Assembly (NCBI GenBank): GCA_039654915.1 | Contig: CM077597.1 | Location: 30,044,001 to 30,108,000, forward strand | Direction of reading: 5' to 3' | Source of the DNA: Aquilaria yunnanensis | Taxonomy: Eukaryota; Streptophyta; Magnoliopsida; Malvales; Thymelaeaceae | Length of the DNA stretch: 64,000 bases | Shown: one piece after another, positions 1 to 43,699 of the stretch | How positions within the stretch are numbered: the stretch's first letter is position 1 | How the letters are laid out: each line of letters starts with the position of its first letter | Notes under the pieces: generated by a model | Seen by the model: the letters and a program-made list of their open reading frames with translations, nothing else | What the model was told of the DNA's origin: nothing | Database searches by the model: none | Program-made: the position numbers and the translations under genes

Positions 1-2051
1 TTTAATTTAAATTTAATTTATTATTAGCTATTTAATTAATTATTAAATGGCACAGGTAGACTGAATATTTCCTAGGTGTGATTTTTATTATGTCAAACTA
101 ATTTTAGATTAATAAAAAAAAGGTTTATCTAATCTAATCATATAATTATGCTTAACATTAATTCCTCAGTTAATTTACACATTTAATTATTTGAGCAAAC
201 GAAAAGACAATAAAAGGAAATCAATGCACGAATTGTAAATCAAAACAAACTCAAAGTTCAGATGAATAAATCAAATAAATCCAAAGATAAATTATTTATT
301 AAAATTACCTATTTAACTTAATCATATAATTAAGCTTAATGTCAATTCCTAAGTTAATTTATGCTTTTAATTAGCTGAACAAACAAAAGTATAATAGAAA
401 ATAAGTGAATTAATGACTTAATTGCAAAAATTAAAACTAAGTTAAAGTATCAGTTAGACAAATCCAATAAATTCATAAGCAAAAATTAAAATTATGTCAA
501 AATTATGGGCTTTCATAACAGATCCGGACTACGAGTCGGTTCGCCATCGGGATTTCGTTATTAAATTTTAATTTAAATAATTTCAGTTAATATCCAAGCC
601 ATGGATTCTAACCGAATCATCTGGACATGGATTTTGTGATTTACTATCGTCCTAAATTCAATTTTTTTAGAATTTTATTAAAACCCGTTCAAAATTGAAT
701 ATCGTAAAGATGATCTTTCAAATATGTTATGTAAACATGTGTTTTAAACTTATACTAACAATGAAAAGTTAAAATCAATATATAAGTAAATATCTGATCT
801 AATTTAAACATACAATTTTATATTAACTCATCAACAAATTCATGATCCAAAATAATAAAACGAGCAATTGAACAAAAATAAACAAAACTATAGATAAAAA
901 AAAAAACAATGCTGTCAATGATTGATCTGCAAAGAAAATAAGGTTAGTAGCTTAAATGAATAAAATAAAAAAAATGGAGGATTGAATAAGAGTTTTTACC
1001 AATAATTAATTTTTTTTGACTTGGTCAAACGGCAAAAAACGCGTCTGGCGTTTTGTTTTGTTTTTTTTTTTTATTTTTTTGTTTCCGTCTTCAGCGTTTT
1101 CTGGTTTCTCCGACGTCGGGAACGGCGCCTAGGTGGCACTGGGGGGGTCGCGACGGAGGTGAGGCGGTGGCGCGACGCTGAGGCTGACGGGACGGCAGTG
1201 TACGGGGAGGTGCGAGACGGCGAGGGCGGGGGACTGGAGGGGAGGAGGCGCTGCAGGGGAGGAGGCGATGTGGAGGAGGGAGTTCTGGAGGGAGGCGACG
1301 GAGCAGGAAGCTGGCAGCAAGGGCGAGGGGGCAACGCGGTGGCACGGGCGCGAACGGCAGGGAGGAGGGAGTTCTAGCTGAGAGGGAGAGAGTGAGCGTG
1401 AGAGTCAGGAGAGGCAGAGGAGAGAAGGGCGAGCGTGAGAGAAGGAGAGAGAAACCGAGAGGGAGAAGGAGAGCAGATGATAGAGGGAGAGCGTGAGAGA
1501 AGGAGAGAGAAACCGAGAGGGAGAAGGAGAGCAGATGTAGGAAGAGCTGGTCGAGAGACAGAGAAGAGAGGATTTTTGAGCGAGAGAGAGAGAGAGAGCG
1601 TAGAGAAGCTCTCTCTCCAATCTCTCATGTTGCCAGAGAAAGAGAGATAAGAGTTCGTGAGAGGGAGAGAAGATAAGATTAGAGATAAGGGGGCGAGAGA
1701 AGATAAGGGATAAGGGGAGGGGGAGCCTCTGTCGGCCACCCTCCCCATTTTTTATTATTATTTTTATTATTTTTTCTCTTTTTTTTTTTCTTTTTAATTA
1801 ATTAATTAATTAATAATTTTTAATTTTAATTAACTTAGATTTAATTTATTATTATTATTATTTTCTTCTTCTTCCCCTTTTTTTTTTTATCATACAAACT
1901 AAAAAGAACGCCCCTAAAATAATATTGCCATTATTACTATTATTATTTTTTTAATTAAGTAATCAATTAATTAACTAATTCAATAAATTTTTTTAATTTT
2001 TAATTTAATTAATTTTTTTATTTTTAAGCCGGACGAAATTGGGTGTCAACA
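1..2051 (-). repeat. 3' LTR of the large retrotransposon, partial (cut by window edge)
   Basis: In the element's sense direction this LTR begins at 2051 with TGTTGACACCCAATTTCG. It matches 16780-18832 at every place I compared. The one difference seen is the length of a T run near 1770-1780 (11 versus 13 T). The rest of this LTR lies left of the window. The GA-rich stretch at about 1380-1740 is pyrimidine-rich (CT)n in the sense direction. Open frames in it are low-complexity and are not called as genes. Confidence 0.9.
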
Positions 2052-2121
2052 GCTGCCCCCCTTTGCATGCTTCATGGGACATGATGTATGCAAAGTTAGT
2101 TACCAAATTTCGTCCAGCTTA
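2025..2121. repeat. Inverted repeat spanning the LTR/PPT junction
   Basis: Arms 2025-2042 and 2103-2121 are reverse complements except for one mismatch and one extra T. The 60-nt loop holds the PPT and the LTR terminus. Confidence 0.7.
2052..2066 (-). other. Polypurine tract (PPT)
   Basis: In the sense direction AAAGGGGGGCAGC abuts the LTR start TGTTGACACC at 2051. Position and composition are those of the plus-strand primer of LTR retrotransposons, and they fix the element's minus orientation. Confidence 0.85.
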
Positions 2122-2157
2122 GCTAGGCATTGAAAACCTTCTCGCCGCCTAAACTCT

Positions 2158-3180
2158 GAGGTTTAAGGAAAGATCCTTAGAACCTCTAACGATAGAAAAG
2201 GTTCTATCGTTGTAAGATGGACTGAAAGATTGATTGTTTGTTTGAGGTTCAGGAAAGGTCCTTAGAACCTCTAACGATAGGAAAGGTTCTATCGTTGTAA
2301 GATGGACTGAATGATTGATTGTTTGTTTGAGGTTAAGGAAAGGTCCTTAGAACCTCTAACGATAGGAAAGGTTCTATCGTTGTAAGATGGACTGAATGAT
2401 TGATTGTTTGTTTGAGGTTTAAGGAAAGGTCCTTAGAACCTCTAACGATAGGAAAGGTTCTATCGTTGTAAGATGGACTGAATGATTAATTGTTTGTTTG
2501 AGGTTTAAGGAAAGGTCCTTAGAACCACTAACGATAGGAAAGGTTCTATCGTTGTAAGATGGACTGAATGATTGATTGTTTGTTTGAGGTTTAAGGAAAG
2601 GTCCTTAGAACCTCTAACGATAGGAAATGTTCTATCGTTGTAAGATGGACTGAATGATTGATTGTTTGTTTGAGGTTTAAGGAAAGGTCCTTAGAACCTC
2701 TAACGATAGGAAAGGTTCTATCGTTGTAAGATGGACTGAATGATTGATTGTTTGTTTGAGGTTTAAGGAAAGTTCCTTAGAACCTCTAACGATAGGAAAG
2801 GTTCTATCGTTGTAAGATGGACTGAATGATTGATTGTTTGTTTGAGGTTTAAGGAAAGTTCCTTAGAACCTCTAACGATAGGAAAGGTTCTATCGTTGTA
2901 AGATGGACTGAATGATTGATTATTTGAGGTTAAGGAAAGGTCCTTAGAACCTCTAATGATAGGAAAGGTTCTATCGTTGTAAGATGGACTGAATGATTGA
3001 TTGTTTGTTTGAGGTTTAAGGAAAGGTCCTTAGAACCTCTAACGATAGGAAAGGTTCTATCGTTGTAAGATGGACTGAATGATTGATTGTTTGTTTGAGG
3101 TTTAAGGAAAGGTCCTTAGAACCTCTAACGATAGGAAAGGTTCTATCGTTGTAAGATGGACTGAATGATTGATTATTTGA
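2158..3180. repeat. Tandem array of 86-bp units with two hairpins each (family 1)
   Basis: There are about 12 units, most with a strict 86-bp period (2158, 2244, ...). Each has a hairpin GAGGTT-TAAGGA-AAGG-TCCTTA-G-AACCTC and a second AACGATAG-(8 nt)-CTATCGTT with an 8-bp perfect stem. A few units lack 4-8 bases of the spacer. Confidence 0.88.
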
Positions 3181-3780
3181 GGTTAAGGAACTCTCCTTAG
3201 AACCTCGACGATAGGAAAGGTTCTATCGTTGAAAGTTTGAGGTTAAGGGCCCTACCTTAGAACCTCTGCGATAAGAACTCTCTTATCGTTTAAGAAAAAT
3301 TGATGATTGATTGTTTGAGGTTTAAGGAACTCTCCTTAGAACCTTAACGATAGGAACTCTCCTATCGTTGCAAGTTTGAGGTTAAGGGCCCTACCTTAGA
3401 ACCTCTGCGATAAGAACTCTCTTATCGTTTGAAGAAAAATTGATGATTGATTGTTTGAGGTTTAAGGAACTTTCCTTAGAACCTCAACGATAGGAACTCT
3501 CCTATCGTTGCAAGTTTGAGGTTAAGGGCCCTACCTTAGAACCTCTGCGATAAGAATTCTCTTATCGTTTGAAGAAAAATTGATGATTGAGGTTAAGGGT
3601 CCTACCTTAGAACCTCGACGATAGGAACTCTCCTATCGTTTGAAGGAAAATTGTTTGTTTTGAGGTTAAGGGTCCTACCTTAGAACCTCGACGATAGGAA
3701 CTCTCCTATCGTTTTGAAGGAAAATTGATGATTTTGAGGTTAAGGGTCCTACCTTAGAACCTCGAATTGATTGATTGATG
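3180..3780. repeat. Tandem array, hairpin family 2
   Basis: Units alternate a gaggttaagg...ccttagaacctc hairpin with a CGATAGGA-ACTC-TCCTATCG or CGATAAGA-ACTC-TCTTATCG hairpin. The paired G-C to A-T change in the second stem keeps pairing. The family is intermediate between families 1 and 3. Confidence 0.75.
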
Positions 3781-5155
3781 TCGAGGCAAAGATTTCATCC
3801 TTAAAACCCCAGATTGATTGGTTGATGTCGAGGCAAAGGTTCCATCCTTAAAACCTCAGATTGATTGGTTGATTTCGAGGCAAAGGTTCCATCCTTAAAA
3901 CCTCGGATTGATTGATTGATGTCGAGGTAAAGGTTCCATCCTTAAAGCCTCGAATTGATTGATTGATGTCGAGACAAAGGTTCCATCCTTAAAACCTCGG
4001 ATTGATAATTGATCTCGAGGCAAAGGTTCCATCCTTAAAGCCCCGGATTGATTGATTGATCTCGAGGCAAAGGTTCTATCCTTAAAACCCCGGATTGATT
4101 AATTGATGTCGAGGCAAAGGTTCCATCCTTAAAACCTCGGATTGATTGATTGATTTCGAGGCAAAGGTTCCATCCTTAAAACCTCGGATTGATTATTGAT
4201 CTCGAGGCAAAGGTTCCATCCTTAAAACCCCGGATTGATTGATTGATCTCGAGGCAAAGGTTCTATCCTTAAAACCCCGGATTGATTGATTGATGTCGAG
4301 GCAAAGATTTCATCCTTAAAACCTCAGATTGATTGAGTTCGAGGCAAAGGTTCCATCCTTAAAACCTCGGATTGATAATTGATTATTTTCGAGACAAAGG
4401 TTCCATCCTTAAAACCTCGGATTGATTAATTGATGTCGAGGCAAAGGTTCCATCCTTAAAACCTCGACGATTGATTGAGTTCGAGGCAAAGGTTCCATCC
4501 TTAAAACCCCGGATTGATTAATTGATGTCGAGGCAAAGGTTCCATCCTTAAAACCTCGACGATTGATTGAGTTCGAGGCAAAGGTTCCATCCTTAAAACC
4601 TCGGATTGATAATTGATTATTTTCGAGACAAAGGTTCCATCCTTAAAACCTCGGATTGATTAATTGATGTCGAGGCAAAGATTTCATCCTTAAAACCTCG
4701 ACGATTGATCGATTTCGAGGCAAAGGTTCCATCCTTAAAACCTCGGATTAATAATTGATCTCGAGGCAAAGGTTCCATCCTTAAAACCTTGAATTGATTG
4801 ATTGATGTCGAGGTAAAGGTTCGATCCTTAAAACCCCGGATTGATTAATTGATGTCGAGGCAAAGGTTCCATCCTTAAAACCTCGGATTGATAATTGATT
4901 GTTTTCGAGGTAAAGGTTCCATCCTTAAAACCTCGGATTGATAATTGATCTCGAGGCAAAGGTTCCATCCTTAAAACCCCGGATTGATTGATTGATCTTG
5001 AGGCAAAGGTTCCATCCTTAAAACCCCGATGATGAAAATTGGTTGTTTTCGAGGCAAAGGTTCCATCCTTAAAACCTCGGATTGATAATTGATCTCGAGG
5101 CAAAGGTTCCATCCTTAAAACCCCGGATTGATTAAAATTGATTTTGAGGCTAAGG
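3780..5155. repeat. Tandem array of about 55-65 bp units with a TCGAGG/CCTCGA hairpin (family 3)
   Basis: There are more than 20 units of the type tcgaggcaaaggttccatc, then cttaaaacctcg and a gattgattgattgat spacer of variable length. Each can pair TCGAGG with CCTCGA and AAGG with CCTT. Minus-strand frames across it are repeat translations and not a gene. Confidence 0.85.
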
Positions 5156-5159
5156 AGCT

Positions 5160-5689
5160 TTCCTTAGGACCTCGAGCGAAATTTATATGAAAGCAATTGA
5201 AATTGGAATAATTTTCTTCGAAAGTGTGAATTTTCATAATAGGCGAGCACAAAGAATTAGGCTTCGATAAAACGAGTGAATCTTGATGACGACAATAACA
5301 CTGACAAATTATGTAAAGGGAACGGATGTTTGGAATCAATATTCAAGGTTCATCTAATATTTTCTTCAGTAAATATAGATTCCCTTGTGAGATATGTCAT
5401 CCGAATAAGGTTAAAGCTTAACTACGCCAAAATGTTATGCCTAGTAGACCTAATAGGATGCGTCTCAAGAGTAATAAAAATTACTCTTTACTCAGCCATT
5501 CCAACCTAAAGGCATTGTCCCATGGTTTTAATATCAGCATGGACGAAACTATCTTATAAGAAAAGAAATTCCTTGAAAAGAAAAACTGAAACGCGAAAGA
5601 AAATGCTGATAATAAAACTAAAGGACAAGAAAAACGGATCAAATCGCTTCTTTCTTCCACAATACTTCAACAGGGTGAGTAGAGGACCA
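5160..5689. other. Unique spacer between LOG stop and repeat arrays
   Basis: This is AT-rich sequence with short frames on both strands and no recognisable domain. In the element's sense direction it is the start of the 3' UTR. Confidence 0.4.
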
Positions 5690-6319
5690 TTATGGGAGTG
5701 AACTGGTCGGAAAAGACTGTCGTGTCCAGTCTATCTGAATCATTGCTGGATCTGGTTCAGGAACAAAAGCTTGTATTTTATCTAGCAATTCTTCAGCAGT
5801 TGTTGCGGATATTATGATTCGCCGTGCCACTCTTGATATGAAATTCTTCTGCATAGCATAATCCATAAAAGCTATCAGACCTGTAAAGAAATTGTTAACA
5901 TTCAAAAGCCCAATGGGTTTCTTATGCAAATTAAGTTGGGCCATGGAAGCAATTTGAAAGACTTCTCCCAATGTGCCAAAACCACCTGGTAGAGCGATAA
6001 AAGCATCAGCATTTAAAAGCATTTGTAACACACGCTCTTGCAAATTTTTAACCACTAATTCTTCTCCAATCGTGCCCCCAGAAATAAATTTCAGAGGTCC
6101 AGGGATAATACCCAGAACTTGACTTCCTCCTAGAGATGCTGCTGATGCTACACCTCCCATTAATCCGACACTACCTCCTCCATAAACTAAATGTATTTTT
6201 CGCTCAGCTAATACTCTTCCCAAATGGTTGGCTGCTTTTAAATACTCTTCATCTTTTCCAGGAAAAGCCCCAGAAAATACACAAATACTTCGGGATTTAC
6301 GAGTTGGGGTTTTCTCCAT
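5690..6319 (-). CDS. LOG-like: LOG-family cytokinin riboside 5'-monophosphate phosphoribohydrolase, intronless retrogene copy
   Basis: Plant LOG enzymes release active free-base cytokinin from its riboside monophosphate in the cytosol. The 209-residue product has the family layout: ICVFSGAFPGK at 12-22, the nucleotide-binding YGGGSVGLMG at 46-55, VLGIIPGPL at 68-76, and the catalytic PGGFGTLGE at 111-119 (P-G-G-x-G-T-x-x-E, glutamate kept). The conserved arginine before it (ER at 95-96) and HKKPIGLLNV at 132-141 are also present. Length is normal. The frame opens further upstream to 6406, but that extension covers the TATA box, so 6319 is preferred. Plant LOG genes normally have several introns; this copy has none, consistent with capture through RNA. 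It is divergent from typical LOG proteins yet has no lesion. Activity is not shown. Confidence 0.88.
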   Translation of the reverse strand: MEKTPTRKSRSICVFSGAFPGKDEEYLKAANHLGRVLAERKIHLVYGGGSVGLMGGVASAASLGGSQVLGIIPGPLKFISGGTIGEELVVKNLQERVLQMLLNADAFIALPGGFGTLGEVFQIASMAQLNLHKKPIGLLNVNNFFTGLIAFMDYAMQKNFISRVARRIIISATTAEELLDKIQAFVPEPDPAMIQIDWTRQSFPTSSLP

Positions 6320-6350
6320 TCCTATCCTTACCTTTGTGAGAAAAGAGGAT

Positions 6351-6360
6351 ATATTTATAG
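6351..6360 (-). promoter_or_regulatory. TATA box of the LOG gene
   Basis: CTATAAATAT on the minus strand, 32 nt upstream of the ATG at 6319. It lies inside the N-terminal extension that would result from starting at 6406, which argues for 6319. The leader would be very short. Confidence 0.5.
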
Positions 6361-6399
6361 AGATGAAGAGATAAGGCAATAATTTTATTTTCAAGAATG

Positions 6400-6865
6400 G
6401 ATACATTATTGCCAGCTATTCACAGTAGTCACGAGTATGACTTTGGTCAGGTATGGGTACACTATCGTTAAAAGAGGAGGAAAATTTTCAAAATAGCTGC
6501 TAGCATGTACAGTAGTCACTACTGTAGCTTACGTCAGGAGTAGGTACGTGATTGTTGGAAGAGAAGGAAAATTTTAAAAAGTGGCAGCTATATACAGTAA
6601 TCATAACTGTATCTTATGTCAGGAGTGGGTACATTATTGGAGGAAAATTTCAAAAGCGTCAGCTAGCATGTACAGTATCGTGACTATGGCTTATGTCAAG
6701 AGTGGATACATTATTGCTGAAAGAGGAGGAAAATTTCAAAAGCGACAGCTAGCACATACAGTAATCGTGACTTTGGTTCATGTCAGGAGTGGATACATTA
6801 TTACCAAAAGGGGAGGAAAATTTCAAAAGCGACAGCTAGCACGTACAGTAATCGTGACCTTGTTC
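6400..6865. repeat. About five tandem repeats of 88 bp upstream of LOG
   Basis: Units contain gaggaaaatttcaaaagcg, cagctagcacgtacagtaatc and gtcaggagtggatacatta. Parts of the unit also occur in the spacers upstream of NABP-like copies 1 and 2, so the array seems to be amplified from the shared upstream module. It could act as an enhancer array. Confidence 0.75.
6529..6536 (-). promoter_or_regulatory. as-1/CRE-like bZIP motif in the LOG upstream array
   Basis: TGACGTAA on the minus strand in one 88-bp unit. Other units have TGACATAA or similar, so only this copy keeps the TGACG core recognised by plant TGA-type bZIP factors. Confidence 0.35.
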
Positions 6866-6908
6866 CGTCTTCTACTGGCTTTGCGTCCAGTAACGGCTTC
6901 AATGCTTT

Positions 6909-7457
6909 CTATGAATCAGTGATTTGCATCTCATCTAGCTTTTTCACAAACTGGCAAACAGGGTCGTTTAGGGTCAGATTCCCAAGACTGTAACGTTCTC
7001 GTTCTTTTTGGAGAATTATCCATAATCCAACAACCTCAAATTGCACTATTCCGCAAGAATGCGCTTCAAGAACCTCTCGGATATCTTCCAGAGATTCCTT
7101 ACGCAAGCCATTCTTGATGAATTTTATTCTATCATTACGATTTCTGGTGATCACTCCTGGAGAACGACATTTATTGCCGCAAATCCACCATCCACAATTG
7201 TGACAGACGCCTAGCCTCTTTGCTCTTCTCTTTTTGGCATAAACGCTTTTACCAAAGCCGGGCATACGGGGAAAGAACGCATCTGGAACTTCACCAGCCG
7301 AACGAACTTTAGCTTCGATTAGCCATCGCACATTATCAGGAATGCCTTTGTGCATAAATAGTCGGAATCGTTCACATCTAGCTTGATAAACCTTTTTAAG
7401 AACATTTATTGGGAAAAAAGGGAAATATTTTCGTAGAGCGGAAAGAGAAGACTCCAT
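6909..7457 (-). CDS. Cysteine-rich nucleic-acid-binding protein-like, copy 1
   Basis: This intact third paralogue is 182 codons from the chosen start. An in-frame ATG lies five codons further upstream at 7472, but 7457 (MESSLSALRK) aligns with the starts of the other two copies. The basic run AKKRRAKR and the four zinc-finger cysteines are present. The spacer residues (WWICGNK) differ most here, so binding preference may have shifted. A TATAAATATG box is at 7523-7514, about 60 nt upstream. The next gene downstream is LOG, separated by an 88-bp repeat array. Confidence 0.8.
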   Translation of the reverse strand: MESSLSALRKYFPFFPINVLKKVYQARCERFRLFMHKGIPDNVRWLIEAKVRSAGEVPDAFFPRMPGFGKSVYAKKRRAKRLGVCHNCGWWICGNKCRSPGVITRNRNDRIKFIKNGLRKESLEDIREVLEAHSCGIVQFEVVGLWIILQKERERYSLGNLTLNDPVCQFVKKLDEMQITDS

Positions 7458-7513
7458 TGATGAAGGAGGCAAAGAAAGAAATTAGTGATTGTAGGAAACG
7501 AAAATAACTAACA

Positions 7514-7523
7514 CATATTTATA
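7514..7523 (-). promoter_or_regulatory. TATA box of NABP-like copy 1
   Basis: TATAAATATG on the minus strand, about 60 nt before the ATG. It is flanked by the same block (plus strand TATAGTGATGAAAGGGATAA) as in the other cargo promoters. Confidence 0.55.
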
Positions 7524-7673
7524 GTGATGAAAGGGATAATGCGTTAATTACACTTACAGAAGCAAGTACATTATTGTCAAAAGAAAAGACAAATGACAGC
7601 TTATATGTACAGCAATCATGACTGTGGCTCTCATATTCCACTGATTTATATCTAGTAATGGCTTCAATGCCTT

Positions 7674-8222
7674 CTATGAGTCGAGGACTTGCTTCCTATC
7701 CAGTTTTCTTACAAGCTGGCAGACAGGGTCGTTTACAGTCACATTCCCAAGACTGTAACGGTCTCGTTCTTTATGGTAAGTCCTCCACAATTTGACAATT
7801 TGACCTTGCACTTTTCCACAAGAATGCGTTTCAAGAGTCTCTCGGATATCTTCCAGAGATTCCTTACGCAGGCCATTCTTAATGAATTTTCTTTTATCTT
7901 CACGATTTGTGGAGATGTATCCTAAAGAGCGACATTTAGTATTACAATTCCATCGCCCACATTTATAACACACGCCTAGTCTCTTTGCTCTTCGCCTTTT
8001 GGCATAACGGCTTTTACCTAAACCGGGCATGCGGGGCATAAATGCATCTGGAACTTCACCCGCCAGACGGACCTTAGCTTCAATTATCCACTGCACATTA
8101 TCGGGAATGCCTTTGCGTGTAAAAACTCTGATTCTTTCACATCTAGCAAGGTAGATCTTTTTAAGGACTTTTATTGGAAGGGAAGGAAAGTATTTTCGCA
8201 GTGCAGAAAGAGTAGAATGCAT
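7674..8222 (-). CDS. Cysteine-rich nucleic-acid-binding protein-like, copy 2
   Basis: This intact 182-codon paralogue of the 8469-9017 gene has no internal stop or gap and is about 70% identical by eye. It keeps the basic run AKRRRAKR and the four cysteines in C-x2-C-x4-C-x3-C, as well as FIKNGLRKESLEDI and the C-terminal NDPVCQLVRKLD. Differences are spread over the protein, while motif residues are unchanged, which looks like purifying selection. A TATAAATG box lies about 80 nt upstream of the start, in a module shared with copy 1 and LOG. A tandem duplication unit of about 765-795 bp (gene plus upstream module) explains the arrangement. Confidence 0.8.
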   Translation of the reverse strand: MHSTLSALRKYFPSLPIKVLKKIYLARCERIRVFTRKGIPDNVQWIIEAKVRLAGEVPDAFMPRMPGLGKSRYAKRRRAKRLGVCYKCGRWNCNTKCRSLGYISTNREDKRKFIKNGLRKESLEDIRETLETHSCGKVQGQIVKLWRTYHKERDRYSLGNVTVNDPVCQLVRKLDRKQVLDS

Positions 8223-8301
8223 TGATGAGAGAAGAATTTGAGAGATGATGGAAAGGAATTAGTTATTGAAGGAAACTTAGATAACCGACTGGAAGAACAT
8301 G

Positions 8302-8309
8302 CATTTATA
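8302..8309 (-). promoter_or_regulatory. TATA box of NABP-like copy 2
   Basis: TATAAATG on the minus strand, followed upstream by a conserved block (GATGAAATGGATAA on the plus strand) also found before copy 1 and LOG. Confidence 0.5.
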
Positions 8310-8468
8310 GCGATGAAATGGATAACGTGTCGATTACACTTACGGGAGCAAATACATTATTAAAAGAAAAATGAAAAATTTTAAATATGATAAATTGTAT
8401 GTACAGTGATTGTGACTGTGGCTCACATCTTCCACTGGTTTTACGTCCAGTAACGGGATTAATGGCTT

Positions 8469-9017
8469 CTATGAGTCGAGGATTTGCTTCCCATCCAGTT
8501 TTCTTACAAGCTGACAAATAGGGTCGTTTAACGTCAGATTCCCGGGACTGTATCGTTCTCGTTCTTCATGAAAAATGCTCCATAAATCGAGAAGTTCACG
8601 TTGCACAGATCCACAAGAATGCGTCTCAAGAGTCAATTGGAGATCATCCAATGAATCCTTACTCAGGCCATTCTTAATGAATCGTATTTTATCTTCTCGA
8701 TTATCAGAGATCATCCCTAAAGAACGACATTTAGTATTACAGGTCCAGCGTCCGCATTTATGACAGACGCCTAGTCTCCTCGCTCTTCGCTTTTTGGCAT
8801 AAGAGCTTTTGCCTACACCAGGCATGTGAGACACAAATGCCTCTGGGATTTCACCTGCCAGACGAACCTTAGCTTCAATTAACCACCGCACATCTTCAGG
8901 GATTCCTTTATGCATCAGAGCTCTTAATCGTTCACAGCGAACTTGGTAGATCTTTTTGAGGATGTTCATTGGGAGAGAAGGAAAATATTTTCGCAAGGCA
9001 GAAAAAGTAGGATCCAT
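8469..9017 (-). CDS. Cysteine-rich nucleic-acid-binding protein-like (betaflexivirus NABP type), copy 3
   Basis: This intact 182-codon gene is the first of the trio in transcription order. Residues 1-65 form a likely helical N-terminal half. Residues 70-81 are a basic patch (K70-SSY-AKKRRARR) typical of nuclear or RNA-binding signals. Cysteines at 85, 88, 93 and 97 form C-x2-C-x4-C-x3-C, a probable zinc finger. A conserved tail with IRFIKNGL follows. The basic patch next to the finger and the following RFxK segment are the layout of the small nucleic-acid-binding proteins of vitiviruses, trichoviruses and carlaviruses. In those viruses such proteins bind RNA or DNA and can suppress silencing. 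Here it is longer at the N terminus. No TATA box was seen upstream, unlike its two relatives. The viral link is motif-based inference. Confidence 0.8.
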   Translation of the reverse strand: MDPTFSALRKYFPSLPMNILKKIYQVRCERLRALMHKGIPEDVRWLIEAKVRLAGEIPEAFVSHMPGVGKSSYAKKRRARRLGVCHKCGRWTCNTKCRSLGMISDNREDKIRFIKNGLSKDSLDDLQLTLETHSCGSVQRELLDLWSIFHEERERYSPGNLTLNDPICQLVRKLDGKQILDS

Positions 9018-9149
9018 TTTCTAGGAGAAAGTAAAAGAAAGGAGGGAGGAAAGGATCAGTTATTATGGGCAACTGAGAGAACCAACTTGAGAGTCACGGA
9101 GTACCGTATCCGCCGTTTAACCGGAAAAGTGGATCCTACTTTATTTTGA

Positions 9150-9540
9150 TGTGAATGATATTTCTTATCTTTGATATTCCATCCAGCTGACGTCGATCGA
9201 GTCCTTGATTATTGAATCTTTTGTCCGCTTTTGACAAATTTTCAACGACAATATTTCTTGATATCTGCCTTATCTTTGACCACAGCTATCTCTTATCTTG
9301 GATGCTGCTAAGCTGGCATCAATCCTATCCTTCCAGGTGTAGCCTCGATTATTCAATCAATTGCCAGGCTTTTGACAATATTGTCTACTTTATCCTTTTT
9401 GATATCTGCCTTATCCTTGGCTATAGCTATCTCTTATCTTGGATACTACTAGCTGACGTCAATCCTGTCCTTCCAGGTGTAGTCTCGATTATTGAATCGA
9501 TTGCCAGGCTTTTGATATATTGTCTACCTTATCCTTGAAT
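9150..9540. repeat. Tandem repeat of about 145 bp, about 2.7 copies
   Basis: Units share gatatctgccttatc, gctatctcttatcttgg, tccttccaggtgtag and attgccaggcttttga. The array lies directly upstream, in the sense direction, of the first NABP-like gene. Confidence 0.7.
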
Positions 9541-11075: not shown

Positions 11076-12309
11076 AAATTTGATTATGGTGAAAAACTCA
11101 ATAGTGATGACCTCAACTTGCCACTCTTTCCAGAAAGTTAGACCTCATCTATTGCCCCCCAACTATTGTGATCTTTATGCATGCTTGGTTTGAGGGTTGC
11201 TTTTGTGTTCTAAACCGCCTTTGCAGGTTTTCAGTCTAGAATCCATAGCTCACTTTTTTTTCTTTCTTTTGCTCTAACTTGAGCCTCTTTTCTTTCTCTT
11301 TTTTTTTTTTTTTGTTTTTTTTTTGTTTCTTTTTTTTTTTGTTTTTTTTTTTTTTGTGAGCTATGGTGATGACGTACTTGATAACTCTCTTGAAGTGAGT
11401 TGACTCAAGTGGCCTTGCTTGCTCGTGCTTGTTCTCAGTCTTTTTTGGTTTTGAATTTTCCCTTGTAGGCTTTTTGATGGAAGGGATGAACTTTTTCCCT
11501 TTTTTTTTTGGAGTTTGTGTTATGGAGAACCGAGATCGTAGCCTTCTTGAAGTGAGATGACTCAAGTGGCTTTATTTGCTTCTCAGTCTCTCTTTTTTTT
11601 TTTGGATTTTTTTTTTTTGGATTTTCCCTTTAATGGCTTTTTGATGGAAGGGATGAACTTTTTCTTTTCGGAGTTTGTGTTGCGGAAAACTGAGAACCCT
11701 TTTTTTTTTTGAGCATTTATGAGAATTGGGAAGCCACTGAAGTCATTTAATATGAGAGCTACCTTGTTTGGAAACTAACCCCAAACTTCTTGCAAGGATG
11801 TTGATAACCACTGTGAATTCTTTTTTAGGGTTGAGGTGCAACATATGAAATCCTTCTTACTAGGTTTGGCAGCACTTTCGAGATCATTACTATCAAATTT
11901 CCCTTAACTTTTTATCTTCACCCACGAGTAGTATTGTTTAGAAAGTAAAGTGTGATGGCAATAATGGGTAGTATAATGGCAAAGATGGATAGTGTAATGG
12001 CAAAGAGTAAGAGATAGATAAAAAAATGGAATTTTTGGTAAAGAGTTGTAGAATGCACACATTAAATCTTTTTGTTGTACCAGAGAAAGAATATCAGGTG
12101 TCCATCTAACAAAGACTACACCCTAGATTCTGGACTAAATCTAGGAGATTTTTACTATTAGATTACCTTGACAAGCTTTCAAAGATACAAGTTTATTCAA
12201 AGGATTCCCTGTCATTCAAAAGTGTGTGCGAACTGTTAGGTCAGATCTGACTTAGAGCCCTTCCAAAATCAATGTAATTCTAGCTCGAAATCTTCACTTT
12301 CAATTACCA
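11076..12309 (-). other. Spacer downstream of gag, no gene seen
   Basis: This stretch contains long T runs (11250-11360, 11590-11620, 11700) and two related blocks containing gatggaagggatgaac (about 11475 and 11645). Frames here are lysine-rich translations of homopolymers. No pol motif was recognised. Confidence 0.5.
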
Positions 12310-13562
12310 ATCACATCATGGTTTAGCAACTTGGACTCGACCAACTGTTGGACCTTGATTTTCAGTACCACACAATTTTCACTTGAATGCCCAATTGAAC
12401 CTTTTTGGTAATCACATTTGGCATTTAGGTCATTCCAACTTCGAAGGGGAAGCTACTTGATCTTTGCTATCGTTGGTATGGGTGATAGCAGGTTTATAGC
12501 TTGTGGAAATTGAATCGACTTAAGTAGCTTTCTTCCCATGAGTGGTATGTGGTACTGATGAGGGAGCCTTGAGGATTACAGTCTCAATAGGATATCATTT
12601 CACTCGTAAGATGAGCGGTAGTGGACCATAGGACTTGGAGATGATGTTTTGGATAGCTCTGCTTCTTTCATTGAAACATCCTCCAATTGAAGAATCGACC
12701 AGCTTTCCTGTTTTGATTCCAAATTTGATCTTTTCTCCAGGTAATACCAAATTTGAAAAGTTACTCGAAGTGTTCCGAAGTATTTGGATAAACAGGGTGA
12801 TCCGTTCTCTTTCTATGATAGGTGGTTGAACTTGTGCGGCTGAATGTCTCCACCTTTATGCGTATTCCTTAAAGGTCTCTTATTCTTTCTTCTCCATATT
12901 CTGGAGAGTTTAGCGATTCGGAACCAAGTTCACAACATGCTTGTAGTTATTGATAGAAGCGTGAGTGAACTCATTCCATGTTCTAATGTTCTTTGGACTT
13001 TCACTTAGGTACCATTGTAGTGTTGACTTTGTAAGACTTTTTTTTTTTTTTTGAAAGAGTGCTGTCCACATCTTCTCATTTTTTATGAGTGGTTGTACTT
13101 TTCTTAGAAACAGTGTAATATGAGTGATGGGACAGCTTGTTTCATCATATTTCACAAAGTCTGGTACCTTAAAGTCTGAGGGAATCACAATATATGGCAC
13201 TATGCAGAGATCATCCACTGATAGAGATCCGAATATAGTGCCTCCTTCAATGGCTCGCAGTCTCTTTTCTATGATCTCAATTTTTTAGTATCTCCTCTTC
13301 TTTAAGCAGGGGCTTCTTTTCTTCAAAAATTGGATTGTGCCTTAGATGAATGTTATCAGATGGGGTTGAGTCGTGAAAGAGCTTCTCTTGAACTGAGACC
13401 TGTTCTGAGTGAATTGGGGAGGATAGGTGAGATCTTGTGGTTCTTTGACGGAGACATGGGTTGCTTTCCCCTTAATTAACTCCATTAATTGTCTCATTTT
13501 CTCAGCCATGCCTTCTATCTTAGATTCAATATCTGTGAGGCGTCATTTGGTTTGTTCTGCCA
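12310..13562 (-). pseudogene. Gag pseudogene, Ty3/gypsy type
   Basis: The frame starts with MAEQTK at 13562 and meets a stop at once. An open piece at 13218-12910 has the plant gypsy Gag signature (IPSDFKVPDFVKYDETSCP, then a KWY-like LQWYLS). Downstream, with further stops, come TLQNMEKKE, FKEYA, RW and AAQVQPP. A Gag zinc knuckle follows at about 12419-12373, C-x8-GH-x4-C with the second Cys missing. The order and spacing are normal for this family, but several in-frame stops mean no full Gag can be made. Protease and RT would normally follow and are absent. Confidence 0.85.
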
Positions 13563-14614
13563 TTAGTCTTGTTTGGAGCCGAGTTGGGTATCAATGTTGA
13601 GGTCCAATTTTACCGTTTTAAAGTAAGATTTATTTTATTAGACTTCATATGCACTTGATTGGTGTGATGGATGTATGTAATACAAAATGAGATTATGTTT
13701 TTATCAAAGTTTATATGTACATGATTAATGTAATGGAATGCATGCAATAGAAAACTGAGATTATGTTTTTATTAGACTTTATATGTATGTGATTGATGTA
13801 ATGGATGCATGCAATGAGATTATATTTTTATCAGATTTTATATGCATGTGATTGACGTAATGGATGTATGCAATGAGTGAGTTTGATTATTCACTATCGA
13901 GGAACTTCGAGATTTCTAGTTGTTATTAGAAAGATTAAAAAGTTATTACAGTTTGACGCGTGGTTTTGATGCATGAAGAATAATTGTATAGAACAGAAGT
14001 ACAATAAAAGAAAAATAAGGTTATTAATAAGTTAAATAGCAATTAACAACTCATGAACTATTATGGAAAAATGAATTAAAACTGTAAATATAAGACGTGA
14101 AGAAAATAAAAGTGTAGAGCAACAACATAGCATAACAATGACATGCTTATGGCGTTGGTAAAATGGGAGGAATACTATGGTCAGTTCTATGGTTAAGTGG
14201 GGAATTCTATATGCATAAGGTGGCTTATCAAAAAGGCCAGGGATAGTTCCCGAATCCCATCACTAAAGTATAGTGACGGCCCAATTCCTTACCCTCTAGG
14301 GTTTATGTAAGGAAGGATTAATTCGAGTCATAGCTTTTCGTGGGCCCATGCAGAGACTAACCGTCTCAGGAGGCAATACACTACTTTGCTACTTTGAAAC
14401 CGGTGAAGGCTTAGAGACCATGGCCTCACAAGGACAACAACACCAATTCCGCTTAGAAAGAATCGTGTTTGATTTAAGGAAGCTCGGGTATAGAGCTTCA
14501 TTTTGTGAATGCATTATGTATGTTTACTTAAGTAAATATAATATATAAATCCACATAATGGTAAAGCAGAGTAAATCAAAACAAATCAACTTTAGGCTCG
14601 ACTCACTAACCAGG
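13563..14614 (-). other. Leader between PBS and gag, no gene seen
   Basis: This non-coding leader holds about four tandem copies of a 60-68 bp unit near gag and a unique stretch at 13880-14610. Short open frames in the unique part have no recognisable domain. Confidence 0.5.
13624..13880. repeat. Tandem repeat of 60-68 bp, about four copies
   Basis: Each unit contains a version of gattatgtttttatcag followed by tgattgatgtaatggatg and a tgcatgcaatgag-type tail. The array lies in the leader between PBS and gag. Confidence 0.7.
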
Positions 14615-14633
14615 GTCCCCAGTGGAGTCGCCA
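14615..14633 (-). other. Primer binding site (PBS)
   Basis: In the sense direction this reads TGGCGACTCCACTGGGGAC, three bases downstream of the inferred LTR end. It starts with TGG, as expected for pairing with a tRNA 3' CCA end. Plant Tat/Ogre elements are known to use a tRNA-Arg primer. I did not check which tRNA matches here. Confidence 0.65.
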
Positions 14634-14925
14634 AGCTGTGGCAACGTGCGGATCGTTTTCGGGAGTCGCCACCAATCTGTTTTTTTCTTAGGTCGATTGG
14701 TCACCTTAAAATTGGTCTGCGAGAGTTCGGGGATCGGGAGTACGGTTACGTTAAAACAACTTTGTTAAAACGCCCAAAAATTGGCACCTTAGTTGATTTT
14801 AATTTTGTTTTGCTTTGCTTTTAAATAATTCTCAGTTAATTTTCAAAATTAGAAATTTTAACTGGATTAGTCGAAATGTGGATTTTTAAATTAATTAATT
14901 TGTATGAAATTTTATACTTCCGAAC

Positions 14926-15003
14926 CATGGACTCTGCCGAGTCATTTGGACACGGAAGATTTGATTCCGAACCATGGACTCTGCCGAGTCATTTGGACAC
15001 GGA
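14926..15003. repeat. Direct repeat inside the LTR
   Basis: Two near-identical copies of ccatggactctgccgagtc plus atttggacacgga lie side by side. Diverged relatives occur at about 15104, 16740 and 600/17379 (gattctaaccgaatcatctg type). Confidence 0.65.
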
Positions 15004-15959
15004 ATTTGGTGAAATTTTAAATAATTTAATCCATATTGTAAACATGGATTTTTATCTTTGTATTTATTTAATTTATTTATTTTAAAAAGTTTGATATTTT
15101 CCAAACCGTAGATCCTGCCGGATCATGCGGATATGGAAATTATTTAGTTAATTATTATTTTATTATTTTATGGAATCAATTATTAGTTTAACTTATAAGT
15201 CTTTTTTATTAAATTTGTTAATGATTTTTTTTTTTTAAAAAAAATCTTTCTTTTTTTATATCTTCTTATTCTTTTCTTTATCTTTTTGATTTTTATCTTT
15301 CTTTTTTTTTTTTTTATTTTTCTTGTTTAATGAAGGATATTTATTATTTAAAGAATTACTCAATTTATAAAAGAATTAAAAATAATTAATTTTTTTATTT
15401 AATAAGAATTTAATTTAAAGGAATCAAAGAGTTTAAAAATAAAAATCTTTGATCATGGTACGGGGCGTTGTTACTCAGCCAGACCCTCTTCACCAGGTGA
15501 AGCAGCTCAAAAGCGGGCACGAGACAGTTTCCAGCCAATATACCATGAACTAAAAAATTTTGACTTAACAACATGGCTCAGATTTATTTTATATATATAT
15601 TTTTTTATGGCTAATTTCTTTAAATGAAATGAGTTTAACCATAAAATAAAGAAAAATTAAATAACAATAAATAAAGTGGAGGTTTTCTCTTTTTTTTTTT
15701 TTTTTGTTTGTTTTGAACATCCATTTAAGAAAATAAAAGGTGCATAAATTAAATAGCACATGCAAATAGATAATGGGAAAACACATAAAGTAAACAAAAG
15801 AATATCAAAAGATGATATATAAATAAATAAAGTGGGGCTTTTCGGCCGTCCACTTTTTTTTTTTTTTTTTTTTTTTAAATAATAAATAGGAGGCATAACC
15901 TTCCATTATAATAATAATAATAATAATAATTAAAGTTAGTTATTAATAAAGTTAGTAAA

Positions 15960-16400
15960 GTTAGTTGTTAGTATAACAAATATTAAATGGTTAGTGATAA
16001 CAATAATAATGAAAGTTAGTGGTTAGCACAATTAATTGTTAGTATAGCAAAAATTAAAGTTAGTGATAACAATAATAATAAAAGTTAGTGGTTAGCACAA
16101 TTAATTGTTAGTATAGCAAAAATTAAAGTTAGTGATAACAATAATAATAAAAGTTAGTGGTTAGCACAATTAATTGTTAGTATAGCAAATATTAAAGTTA
16201 GTGATAACAATAATAATAAAAGTTAGTGGTTAGCACAATTAATTGTTAGTATAGCAAATATTAAAGTTAGTGATAACAATAATAATAAAAGTTAGTGGTT
16301 AGCACAATTAATTGTTAGTATAGCAAAAATTAAAGTTAGTGATAACAATAATAATAAAAGTTAGTGGTTAGCACAATTAATTGTTAGTATAGCAAAAATT
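15960..16400. repeat. 68-bp tandem repeat inside the 5' LTR, about six copies
   Basis: Units contain ttagtggttagcacaatta, attgttagtatagcaaa and gtgataacaataataataa. Copies are almost identical, which suggests recent expansion. The matching part of the 3' LTR is outside the window. Confidence 0.8.
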
Positions 16401-18832
16401 AAATGGTTAGTGATGTTAGTTGAGTTAGTAATTAGTTTATGCAAAAATTAAATAGTTAGTAATCTGAATTGAATAATAATAATAATAACAATAATAATAA
16501 TAATAATAATAATAAATAATAATAATAATAAACATATAAAGATTATTGTTAGTTCTGTAGAAATAAAAAAAAGGTTAGTGACTTGTATAAATAAAATAAA
16601 TAAAAAAATGGAGAATAAGAGAAGAATTGTACCGAGATTCTGAATCGACTTTTAATCGAGTTGAGGATTCGCGAACGGATTTCATTATTAAATTATTATT
16701 ATTATTATTATTTCTATTTTTAAATAATTTCAATTAATATCCAAGCCATAGATTCTAACCGAATCATCTGGTCATGGAATTTAATTTAAATTTAATTTAT
16801 TATTAGCTATTTAATTAATTATTAAATGGCACAGGTAGACTGAATATTTCCTAGGTGTGATTTTTATTATGTCAAACTAATTTTAGATTAATAAAAAAAA
16901 GGTTTATCTAATCTAATCATATAATTATGCTTAACATTAATTCCTCAGTTAATTTACACATTTAATTATTTGAGCAAACGAAAAGACAATAAAAGGAAAT
17001 CAATGCACGAATTGTAAATCAAAACAAACTCAAAGTTCAGATGAATAAATCAAATAAATCCAAAGATAAATTATTTATTAAAATTACCTATTTAACTTAA
17101 TCATATAATTAAGCTTAATGTCAATTCCTAAGTTAATTTATGCTTTTAATTAGCTGAACAAACAAAAGTATAATAGAAAATAAGTGAATTAATGACTTAA
17201 TTGCAAAAATTAAAACTAAGTTAAAGTATCAGTTAGACAAATCCAATAAATTCATAAGCAAAAATTAAAATTATGTCAAAATTATGGGCTTTCATAACAG
17301 ATCCGGACTACGAGTCGGTTCGCCATCGGGATTTCGTTATTAAATTTTAATTTAAATAATTTCAGTTAATATCCAAGCCATGGATTCTAACCGAATCATC
17401 TGGACATGGATTTTGTGATTTACTATCGTCCTAAATTCAATTTTTTTAGAATTTTATTAAAACCCGTTCAAAATTGAATATCGTAAAGATGATCTTTCAA
17501 ATATGTTATGTAAACATGTGTTTTAAACTTATACTAACAATGAAAAGTTAAAATCAATATATAAGTAAATATCTGATCTAATTTAAACATACAATTTTAT
17601 ATTAACTCATCAACAAATTCATGATCCAAAATAATAAAACGAGCAATTGAACAAAAATAAACAAAACTATAGATAAAAAAAAAAACAATGCTGTCAATGA
17701 TTGATCTGCAAAGAAAATAAGGTTAGTAGCTTAAATGAATAAAATAAAAAAAATGGAGGATTGAATAAGAGTTTTTACCAATAATTAATTTTTTTTGACT
17801 TGGTCAAACGGCAAAAAACGCGTCTGGCGTTTTGTTTTGTTTTTTTTTTTTATTTTTTTGTTTCCGTCTTCAGCGTTTTCTGGTTTCTCCGACGTCGGGA
17901 ACGGCGCCTAGGTGGCACTGGGGGGGTCGCGACGGAGGTGAGGCGGTGGCGCGACGCTGAGGCTGACGGGACGGCAGTGTACGGGGAGGTGCGAGACGGC
18001 GAGGGCGGGGGACTGGAGGGGAGGAGGCGCTGCAGGGGAGGAGGCGATGTGGAGGAGGGAGTTCTGGAGGGAGGCGACGGAGCAGGAAGCTGGCAGCAAG
18101 GGCGAGGGGGCAACGCGGTGGCACGGGCGCGAACGGCAGGGAGGAGGGAGTTCTAGCTGAGAGGGAGAGAGTGAGCGTGAGAGTCAGGAGAGGCAGAGGA
18201 GAGAAGGGCGAGCGTGAGAGAAGGAGAGAGAAACCGAGAGGGAGAAGGAGAGCAGATGATAGAGGGAGAGCGTGAGAGAAGGAGAGAGAAACCGAGAGGG
18301 AGAAGGAGAGCAGATGTAGGAAGAGCTGGTCGAGAGACAGAGAAGAGAGGATTTTTGAGCGAGAGAGAGAGAGAGAGCGTAGAGAAGCTCTCTCTCCAAT
18401 CTCTCATGTTGCCAGAGAAAGAGAGATAAGAGTTCGTGAGAGGGAGAGAAGATAAGATTAGAGATAAGGGGGCGAGAGAAGATAAGGGATAAGGGGAGGG
18501 GGAGCCTCTGTCGGCCACCCTCCCCATTTTTTATTATTATTTTTATTATTTTTTCTCTTTTTTTTTTTTTCTTTTTAATTAATTAATTAATTAATAATTT
18601 TTAATTTTAATTAACTTAGATTTAATTTATTATTATTATTATTTTCTTCTTCTTCCCCTTTTTTTTTTTATCATACAAACTAAAAAGAACGCCCCTAAAA
18701 TAATATTGCCATTATTACTATTATTATTTTTTTAATTAAGTAATCAATTAATTAACTAATTCAATAAATTTTTTTAATTTTTAATTTAATTAATTTTTTT
18801 ATTTTTAAGCCGGACGAAATTGGGTGTCAACA

Positions 18833-18968
18833 TTAGTCAATCAATAAACTCAACCTAAATTCCAACTCTTGTCTAAAAAAACCTGAAACATAGGTTCTAT
18901 GGCTAAAACAACTTCAGATTACATCTTCTGTGGATCAATTTGCAAACCAAAGTGACAACATTACACAC
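18833..18968 (-). other. Intron remnant between host exon 5 and the retrotransposon
   Basis: This begins after the LTR terminus. In the host gene's direction it follows the GT donor at 18968. It is the only visible part of the interrupted intron. Confidence 0.7.
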
Positions 18969-40560: not shown

Positions 40561-40599
40561 CAAAGTGGACCCTTTTTGTATAGATCATTGCCAATGATG

Positions 40600-41640: not shown

Positions 41641-41649
41641 CATTCAAAT

Positions 41650-43190: not shown

Positions 43191-43194
43191 TTTC

Positions 43195-43680: not shown

Positions 43681-43699
43681 GTATCATACTTCTCGAATA

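What the first reader, a model, noticed from the sequence alone, without database searches (positions are those of the whole stretch)
1..18832. A retrotransposon that swapped its enzymes for a cytokinin-activation gene and three virus-like nucleic-acid-binding genes
Between matching LTR sequences, with a PBS and a PPT in the right places, the element has only a dead gag and no pol. It has four intact genes in its own sense direction: three NABP-like genes and LOG. In viruses NABPs can suppress RNA silencing or enter the nucleus and alter host gene expression; LOG makes active cytokinin. A mobile element carrying both would have tools against silencing and for host cell proliferation. The seen part is the layout and intact frames; the joint role is inference.
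Basis: partly seen in the sequence, partly recalled or inferred. Interest (0 to 1): 0.92.

Follow-up and report, generated by a model that had tools for sequence, protein, structure and literature searches.

The report
Jumping gene carrying hormone-activating gene cassette
In a plant genome, a family of recently active retrotransposons carries, beyond the genes needed to copy itself, a set of three to five virus-like nucleic-acid-binding genes plus a gene that resembles the plant enzyme activating the growth hormone cytokinin; the copy in this window has lost its own enzymes but kept this set intact.

Summary
The element is real and young, but it is one of a family and did not "swap" enzymes for cargo. 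It lies on the minus strand of an 842-Mb plant genome, spans 20,977 bp, with 4,196-bp LTRs (3 mismatches) and a TTAGT duplication; the window cuts its 3' LTR. It has no pol, a decayed gag, three intact NABP-like genes (PF05515/PF01623) and an intact LOG-like gene. All 20 fetched relatives, chosen by NABP2 similarity, carry the genes in this order. Two of them bear Ogre/Tat-type enzymes; two of two enzyme loci inspected independently carry the cassette as well. So the cassette belongs to the family, and this copy is a non-autonomous derivative. Pooled in-frame pN/pS is 0.12-0.27 (higher, up to 0.42, among the closest pairs), indicating purifying selection. LOG and two NABP genes have their own TATA boxes. 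Related NABP and LOG genes occur in other eudicots. LOG domains in Gypsy elements were already reported (PMC9289625); I found no report of the NABPs or the linked cassette. The anti-silencing and growth roles remain inference.

The parts
1..2051 (-). Inner part of the 3' LTR (full LTR 4,196 bp, from G000:C5:30041856 to window 2051)
   Evidence: blastn of left copy against right copy: 3 mismatches, 3 gap openings in 4,202 columns; ends TG..CA
2052..2064 (-). Polypurine tract AAAGGGGGGCAGC directly before the 3' LTR (sense)
   Evidence: sequence; same junction in the enzyme-bearing C2 copy
2157..5155 (-). Arrays of 86-, 140-, 71- and 47-bp tandem repeats between LOG and the PPT
   Evidence: TRF
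5690..6319 (-). LOG-like gene, 209 aa from its likely Met; PGGFGTLGE motif and the Arg of the LOG motif kept
   Evidence: PF03641 E 1.8e-30; Arabidopsis 2a33 E 9e-52; 150 of 150 scored genome loci at 100% protein identity
6352..6360 (-). TATA box CTATAAATA about 40 bp before LOG
6472..6862 (-). 85-87-bp repeats upstream of LOG, possible promoter or enhancer region
   Evidence: TRF, sequence
6909..7457 (-). NABP1, 182 aa
   Evidence: PF05515 E 7.7e-6, PF01623 E 1.7e-4, both over cut-off
7516..7524 (-). TATA box CTATAAATA about 66 bp before NABP1; a block of about 65 bp ending here is shared with the LOG promoter
7674..8222 (-). NABP2, 182 aa
   Evidence: PF05515 E 3.2e-8, PF01623 E 1.6e-5
8303..8310 (-). 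TATA box CTATAAAT about 87 bp before NABP2
8469..9017 (-). NABP3, 182 aa; no CTATAAAT near it
   Evidence: PF01623 E 9.8e-7, PF05515 E 1.3e-6
12321..13497 (-). Decayed gag, related to the gag of the enzyme-bearing C2 copy
   Evidence: tblastn 57.6% over 304 aa and 43% over 65 aa; 72% over 124 aa
14616..14633 (-). Primer-binding site TGGCGACTCCACTGGGGA, 3 nt after the 5' LTR (tRNA-Arg by recall, not tested)
   Evidence: identical in the C2 copy
14637..18832 (-). 5' LTR, 4,196 bp
18833..18837 (.). Target-site duplication TTAGT; the other copy lies just before C5:30041856

Best explanation
The element is a non-autonomous member of a recently amplified Ogre/Tat-type Gypsy family. Its enzyme-bearing members have the layout ORF1, gag-pro, RT-RH-aRH-INT, then three or four NABP genes, then LOG. 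The window copy lacks ORF1 and pro-pol, its gag has decayed, and it keeps LTR ends, PBS, PPT and the accessory cassette; it is presumably mobilised by proteins of the complete members (inferred). The cassette is kept functional by selection in the lineages that spread (shown by low pN/pS). At least LOG, NABP1 and NABP2 are probably made from their own internal promoters (inferred from TATA boxes). The NABP proteins most likely bind nucleic acid and counter silencing or activate transcription, as the carlavirus protein p12 does. LOG most likely releases active cytokinin in the expressing cell and favours dividing, meristem-like cells in which the element is transcribed and inherited. Both roles are inferred from family membership.
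For: Structure, LTR identity and TSD. Cassette in 20 of 20 fetched copies. Enzyme-bearing members: C2 element (L034, L032, L035, L036) with TSD ATAAC, LTRs with 9 mismatches and 7 gap openings in 2,570 columns and 7 mismatches in 1,093, ORF1 (PF24924), gag (PF03732), G-patch, RT (PF00078); C8 copy with RNase H, RVT_3 and integrase in one 720-aa frame on L033 directly upstream of NABP3. Both were found through NABP2; the independent test is two of two RT loci inspected from a random draw, both with the cassette, one with four NABPs. Window and C2 copy share PBS, leader (93% of 455 columns), cassette (94.9% of 4,434) and 3' region (96.8% of 1,197). Selection: pN/pS LOG 0.22-0.27, NABP1 0.18-0.23, NABP2 0.12, NABP3 0.14-0.15 over all distinct pairs or pairs with 15 or more differences; for the latter, other frames give 0.6-4.2. 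Large numbers: 99 of 99 scored RT loci at 99-100% identity; 150 of 150 scored LOG loci at 100%. CTATAAAT occurs three times on the sense strand of the interior, once before each of LOG, NABP1, NABP2; the LOG and NABP1 upstream regions share a block that 0 of 500 shuffles match.
Against: No transcript, protein or transposition data. Copies were sampled by NABP2 similarity, and the genome search scores only the best 99-150 loci, so cargo-free members could be missed; linking lists by coordinates showed a cassette gene near few RT loci (1 of 50 for NABP2, 3 of 99 for LOG), which the capped lists may explain but do not prove. Pairs with 1-14 differences have in-frame pN/pS up to 0.42 (NABP1), not lower than one of the other frames (0.40), so selection on the youngest branches is not shown. 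The copies are mosaics, so recombination with complete members could refresh the cargo without selection on each copy. Window and C2 LTRs are alike (82.6%) mainly over the 917 bp next to the PBS. LOG was not assayed; several motif residues next to the Arg differ from Arabidopsis LOG. NABP3 has no TATAAA box within 120 bp (0 of 20 copies).
Confidence: 0.72

Rival explanations
1. Passive gene capture: a host LOG and virus-derived NABP genes were caught by an element and are carried as neutral passengers of a young burst.
For: LTRs are nearly identical, so little time has passed for decay; gene capture by plant LTR elements is known (PMC7264820, part 1 of 3 read); the closest pairs show weak or no constraint.
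Against: In-frame pN/pS 0.15-0.27 against 0.6-4.2 in the other frames for the more divergent pairs; LOG alleles 10% apart in DNA are still intact (L016, L025); the cassette also sits in complete members; 36 LOG proteins from the database, among them Populus, Paulownia, Reevesia, Diplodiscus and Parasponia, group with the element's LOG apart from two Arabidopsis LOGs, which suggests an old association, although host LOGs of those plants were not sampled.
Confidence: 0.08
2. The cassette serves the element only through its own RNA: NABPs act as RNA chaperones or silencing suppressors, and LOG is kept for a nucleotide-related side activity (for example on N6-modified AMP) rather than for cytokinin signalling.
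For: NABPs match a Pfam family of viral nucleic-acid-binding proteins, of which p12 is a silencing suppressor (PMC7588395); an orchid Gypsy element carries an m6A RNA demethylase (PMC9289625), so RNA-modification cargo has precedent.
Against: LOG keeps the PGGxGTxxE motif and matches Arabidopsis LOG-type proteins best among solved structures; no evidence for another substrate.
Confidence: 0.17
3. The cassette benefits the host (domestication in place), for example by adding cytokinin-activation capacity.
For: Many intact copies would raise dosage.
Against: The genes sit in many dispersed young copies that move with LTRs, not at one fixed locus; Reevesia also has many LOG-like rows.
Confidence: 0.05

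Closest known systems
Ogre lineage of Ty3/gypsy Tat elements (PMC6317226, passages)
   Same: ORF1 before gag, gag-pro and RT-RH-aRH-INT in two ORFs 191 bp apart, additional RNase H between RH and INT, large LTRs, tandem repeats, 5-bp TSD in the enzyme-bearing copies.
   Different: A sense cassette of NABP genes plus LOG between pol and 3' LTR; the window copy has no ORF1 or pol.
Gypsy elements with a YgdH/LOG domain in Citrus and Populus (PMC9289625, section 12 read; it cites Steinbauerova 2011, not held; my recall of that abstract is two Athila-like elements similar to LOGL4)
   Same: LOG-type gene inside Gypsy elements.
   Different: Section 12 does not mention NABP genes, the linked cassette, own promoters or pol-less carriers. 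Those elements were found through their RT domain, so pol-less copies were out of reach.
Retand elements with antisense ORFs between pol and 3' LTR (PMC11963269, abstract and passages)
   Same: Long region between pol and 3' LTR with extra genes and tandem repeats; some members are non-autonomous.
   Different: Here the extra genes are in sense and match NABP and LOG, not TRP28.
Carlavirus NABP, e.g. chrysanthemum virus B p12 (PMC7588395, abstract and passages)
   Same: Pfam Viral_NABP and Carla_C4 profiles matched over their cut-offs by 3 of 3 window proteins and at E <= 0.01 by 57 and 54 of 58 family members.
   Different: Element proteins are 182 aa, in tandem, in a retrotransposon; fold comparison was inconclusive (model pTM 0.29; best viral match E 0.057). 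That p12 falls in these Pfam families is recall.
Orchid Gypsy elements with an m6A demethylase (PMC9289625, passages)
   Same: Host-type enzyme acquired by a giant (25 kb) Gypsy element.
   Different: Single enzyme of RNA modification, not a multi-gene cassette with a hormone enzyme.

Membership tests
LTR retrotransposon | Paired LTRs, PBS, PPT, target-site duplication | tested here: met
Tat/Ogre (enzyme-bearing copies) | Second RNase H (aRH) between RH and integrase | tested here: met
   RT_RNaseH, RVT_3, Integrase_H2C2, rve in this order on L033
Tat/Ogre (enzyme-bearing copies) | ORF upstream of gag, often with plant mobile domain (57% of Ogre elements, PMC6317226) | tested here: inconclusive
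   ORF1 of 572 aa present; DUF7745 E 5.4e-56; PMD E 2.9e-8 but 33.7 bits, just under its cut-off 34.9
Tat/Ogre (enzyme-bearing copies) | gag-pro and RT-RH-INT in two ORFs separated by a short region | tested here: met
   191 bp in both copies examined; paper mean 274 bp. Whether it is an intron was not tested
Tat/Ogre (enzyme-bearing copies) | RT phylogeny within Ogre | not tested
   no Ogre reference sequences at hand
Tat/Ogre | PBS complementary to tRNA-Arg (as Ogre's primer this is recall) | not tested
   the tRNA matching this PBS is recall
Retand | Antisense ORF with TRP28 between pol and 3' LTR | tested here: not met
   the genes found there are in sense and match NABP and LOG
Non-coding large retrotransposon derivative (LARD; definition recalled) | Large interior without coding capacity | tested here: not met
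   four intact genes
LOG cytokinin phosphoribohydrolase | Lysine_decarbox/LOG family with PGGxGTxxE and conserved Arg (motif recalled, read in the alignment) | tested here: met
LOG cytokinin phosphoribohydrolase | Enzyme activity on cytokinin nucleotides | not testable with these tools
   needs an assay
Viral NABP (PF05515, PF01623) | Profile match over curated cut-off | tested here: met
   3 of 3 window proteins; family members
Viral NABP | Nucleic-acid binding or silencing suppression | not testable with these tools
   needs an assay

The most novel reading that the evidence does not exclude
A mobile accessory cassette of eudicot Gypsy elements joins a plant-virus-type nuclear zinc-finger protein and a cytokinin-activating enzyme, most genes with their own promoter. 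Together they push the host cell into a dividing, poorly silenced state in which the element multiplies. The cassette is so valuable that copies that lost all enzymes still keep it, and it has been passed between Gypsy lineages (Ogre-type here, Athila-type elsewhere) and shares a gene pool with plant RNA viruses.
Probability: 0.3. Interest if true: 0.92.

Novelty: new variant of a known kind. Interest (0 to 1): 0.68.

Why it matters
Extra genes in plant Gypsy elements are common but mostly without known domains or function. Here two kinds of them point to concrete activities (nucleic-acid binding or silencing suppression, cytokinin activation), they stay linked, and they show purifying selection in a family with at least 150 LOG copies of one protein sequence. 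That makes the question of why retrotransposons keep accessory genes directly testable, raises the possibility of a hormone-manipulating retrotransposon, and ties a plant RNA-virus protein family to a retrotransposon gene family. It also warns that LOG and "viral NABP" gene models in plant annotations may be transposon genes.

Tried and rejected
Viral origin of the whole unit: scans of IMG/VR with one NABP and with a 25-sequence NABP alignment found no relative. Fold comparison of NABP: low-confidence model (mean pLDDT 62.5, pTM 0.29); many of the best viral matches are NABP or silencing-suppressor proteins of carla- and related viruses, but none has E <= 0.001, so I do not count it. Solved structures: nothing with E under 0.3 for NABP. 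Assembly join: rejected. Cargo acquired by pol-less copies alone: rejected. A caulimovirus-like as-1 promoter for the cargo: TGACGT[AC]A occurs only twice in the interior, so not claimed. A search with the general RT family filled its 150 places with loci that I did not examine further; it did not serve.

Linking RT loci to cassettes by coordinates had little power because the lists are cut at the best 99-150: 1 of the first 50 RT loci (of 99) had an NABP2 among 147 typed NABP2 places (three on small contigs were left out), and 3 of 99 RT loci had a LOG of the 150 listed at the expected place, plus one RT locus with a LOG on the wrong side, 11.8 kb off.

Papers: PMC11963269 abstract and passages; PMC9289625 passages and section 12; PMC7264820 passages and part 1 of 3; PMC6317226 passages; PMC7588395 abstract and passages; Lukhovitskaya 2013 only as a title in a reference list; Steinbauerova 2011 not held, recalled. 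Supplementary tables were not read, so the gene lists there may hold NABP hits. No report of NABP or of the linked cassette in retrotransposons was seen in searches (listings; some searches found more papers than they listed), all in an open-licence subset of PubMed Central.
Full report
What is there. The window is G000:C5:30044001-30108000 of an 842-Mb plant genome (that it is a plant follows from its content and relatives). A retrotransposon lies on its minus strand from C5:30041856 to window 18832 (20,977 bp). Its LTRs are 4,196 bp and differ by 3 mismatches and 3 gap openings in 4,202 aligned columns. The ends are TG..CA, the target duplication is TTAGT, the primer-binding site TGGCGACTCCACTGGGGA follows the 5' LTR after 3 nt, and AAAGGGGGGCAGC precedes the 3' LTR. 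At substitution rates used for plants (7e-9 to 1.3e-8 per site per year, recalled) the copy is a few tens of thousands of years old.

Cargo. In sense order: NABP3 (9017-8469), NABP2 (8222-7674), NABP1 (7457-6909), LOG (6319-5690). All are open. The three NABPs pass the Pfam cut-offs of Viral_NABP and Carla_C4, and 57 and 54 of 58 aligned relatives match these two profiles at E <= 0.01. LOG matches Lysine_decarbox at E 1.8e-30 and the solved Arabidopsis protein At2g37210 at E 9e-52, with the PGGxGTxxE motif and its Arg in place, though neighbouring motif residues differ. Searches of the window with the protease, RT, RNase H-integrase and ORF1 frames of the enzyme-bearing copies found none of these in the element; a decayed gag lies at 12321-13497.

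It is a family. Of 8,937 first-look candidates for NABP2 in the genome 150 were scored; all 150 are 97-100% identical and 141 have no stop. For LOG 150 of 150 scored loci are listed at 100% protein identity without a stop, out of 3,666 first-look candidates. I fetched 10 kb around 20 NABP2 copies: 20 of 20 have the genes in the same order on one strand; LOG is intact in 17, NABP1 in 20, NABP2 in 20, NABP3 in 15, all four in 14. L030 holds five NABP genes and L031 a broken NABP3 with extra NABP pieces. These 20 were picked on NABP2 similarity, so NABP2 divergence is understated and intact copies are over-represented.

Complete members carry the cassette too. Two of the 20 (L032, L033) have an RNase H - second RNase H - integrase reading frame just upstream of NABP3. 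The C2 element spans C2:355682-379340, with TSD ATAAC, LTRs with 9 mismatches (7 gap openings) in 2,570 and 7 mismatches in 1,093 aligned columns, the same PBS, ORF1 (572 aa; DUF7745), gag (655 aa), a protease-region frame with a G-patch (458 aa), RT (425 aa), then INT, NABP3-2-1, LOG, PPT and 3' LTR. This copy has one stop inside pol, between the second RNase H and the integrase, and gag and the protease region in two overlapping frames. The C8 copy has gag-pro in one 1,121-aa frame and pol open on both sides of the border of L037 and L033, in the same frame (the one codon at the border was not read), but ORF1 in two pieces. RT of this family: 99 of 99 scored loci at 99-100% identity, 98 without a stop in the matched stretch, 89 listed with a 1,144-aa frame (one of these has the stop). 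L032 and L033 were found through NABP2, so they are no independent test. Independent: I drew 12 RT loci at random from 49 of the 99 and could fetch the downstream stretch of two; both carry the cassette, one with four NABP genes (L040) and one with three (L041). The other ten were not seen. Three more RT loci have a listed LOG at the expected 6.9-7.7 kb.

Relation of window copy and C2 copy. They share the PBS, 93% over 455 columns of leader, a decayed against an open gag (75.6% in DNA over 907 columns), 94.9% over the cassette and 96.8% over the 3' region; the LTRs align at 82.6% mainly over the 917 bp next to the PBS. The window copy is therefore best read as a non-autonomous derivative; the gag decayed while the cargo did not. 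Identity along the cassette is patchy: in L015 NABP1 and NABP2 are 100% and NABP3 93% identical to the window's, as expected from recombination between co-replicating copies.

Selection. Pooled pN/pS over distinct copies is 0.22 for LOG, 0.23 for NABP1, 0.12 for NABP2 and 0.15 for NABP3; for pairs with at least 15 differences 0.26, 0.18 and 0.14 for LOG, NABP1 and NABP3 (NABP2 has no such pair). Copies whose gene differs in length were dropped (one for LOG, one for NABP3); copies with stops were kept, stop codons skipped. Among pol-less copies alone the values for the divergent pairs are 0.27, 0.18 and 0.15, against 0.6 to 4.2 in the two wrong frames. Closer pairs (1-14 differences) give 0.19, 0.42, 0.12 and 0.31; for NABP1 that is no lower than one wrong frame (0.40), for LOG and NABP3 it is below both wrong frames but by less. 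Pairs are not independent. So selection is shown for the lineages, not for the youngest copies.

Expression design. CTATAAAT occurs three times on the sense strand of the 12.6-kb interior, once before each of LOG, NABP1 and NABP2. TATAAA is found within 120 bp of the start in 20, 20 and 18 of 20 copies, and in 0 of 20 for NABP3; one of the NABP1 boxes is at -115 instead of -66. The plain TATAAA hexamer occurs 11 times on that strand, and the copies are close relatives, so these counts alone say little. LOG and NABP1, unrelated genes, share a block of about 65 bp ending in the TATA box (score 47; 0 of 500 shuffles reach it). LOG against NABP2: 9 of 500 reach; LOG against NABP3: 143; NABP1 against NABP3: 50; NABP1-NABP2 and NABP2-NABP3: 0, as expected for duplicated genes. 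I infer separate mRNAs for at least LOG, NABP1 and NABP2.

Other plants. NABP relatives: 113 proteins at E <= 0.001 in one search and 485 at E <= 1 with an alignment, 120 of them listed. Every listed row that names an organism names a plant (Xanthoceras, Acer, Rhamnella, Orobanche, Parasponia, Citrus, Populus); most rows name none. Two gene models join NABP and LOG sequence (P0083 Rhamnella, P0106 Citrus); my own Pfam scan saw only their LOG part at E <= 0.01, while the precomputed domains and the alignment show the NABP part. Two contig lengths (8,723 and 4,511) list both an NABP and a LOG, which I take as shared contigs (not verified). P0064 of Rhamnella joins what I recognise, from recall, as an Athila-type integrase end to an NABP; Pfam did not name the integrase part. 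In a tree of 44 LOGs the 41 rows retrieved with the window's LOG (five of this genome, 36 of the database) group together (98/97) apart from Arabidopsis LOG3 and LOG8; they were the best matches, and host LOGs of the same species were not sampled. In both trees the proteins of the 4,511-base contig sit beside the rows that hold Populus, as expected if the two genes travel together. NABP1, 2, 3 and the fourth type form one group with two unnamed close relatives (100/99), so they arose by duplication within this plant's lineage.

Placing it. Position of the second RNase H, two-ORF layout and an ORF1 before gag match Ogre as described in PMC6317226; I did not make an RT tree. LOG domains in Gypsy elements are known (PMC9289625). 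That survey started from the RT domain, and PMC6317226 counted only extra ORFs of 250 codons or more, which would pass over proteins of 182 and 209 aa. What I did not find in print is NABP genes in retrotransposons, the linked cassette, its promoters, and its retention in enzyme-less copies (searches named in Tried and rejected).

Mechanism. Shown: anatomy, number of intact copies, cassette in complete and pol-less members, purifying selection on lineages. Inferred: mobilisation in trans; internal promoters; NABP as silencing suppressor or transcription factor (carlavirus p12 is described as both, PMC7588395); LOG as local cytokinin activator. The two inferred activities could converge on dividing, poorly silenced cells. 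I give the anatomical and evolutionary part about 0.9, the functional part about 0.35.

Noticed in passing
window 22979-23138: About six copies of a 26-bp near-palindrome, TTACCAACGTGCATGCGCGTTGGTAA.
   Followed up: no
window 50054-50511: Tandem array of about 93-bp units (82% matches in the TRF row).
   Followed up: no
window 40097-43923, minus strand: Decayed Gypsy pol (RT 33%, RNase H/INT 28-36% identical to the family here), so another lineage.
   Followed up: partly
window 62324-63106, minus strand: Copia-type reverse transcriptase fragment, PF07727 E 2.6e-42.
   Followed up: no
L040 (C8:55449153-55454152) and L030 (C7:19666011-19676010): Members with four and five NABP genes instead of three.
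   Followed up: partly
window 5160-9250 against L014-L033: Mosaic identity along the cassette, suggesting recombination between copies.
   Followed up: partly
P0236, P0246, P0028, P0057, P0074, P0076: NABP-like genes annotated as hypothetical or uncharacterized proteins in Populus, Xanthoceras, Acer and Orobanche may be transposon genes.
   Followed up: no
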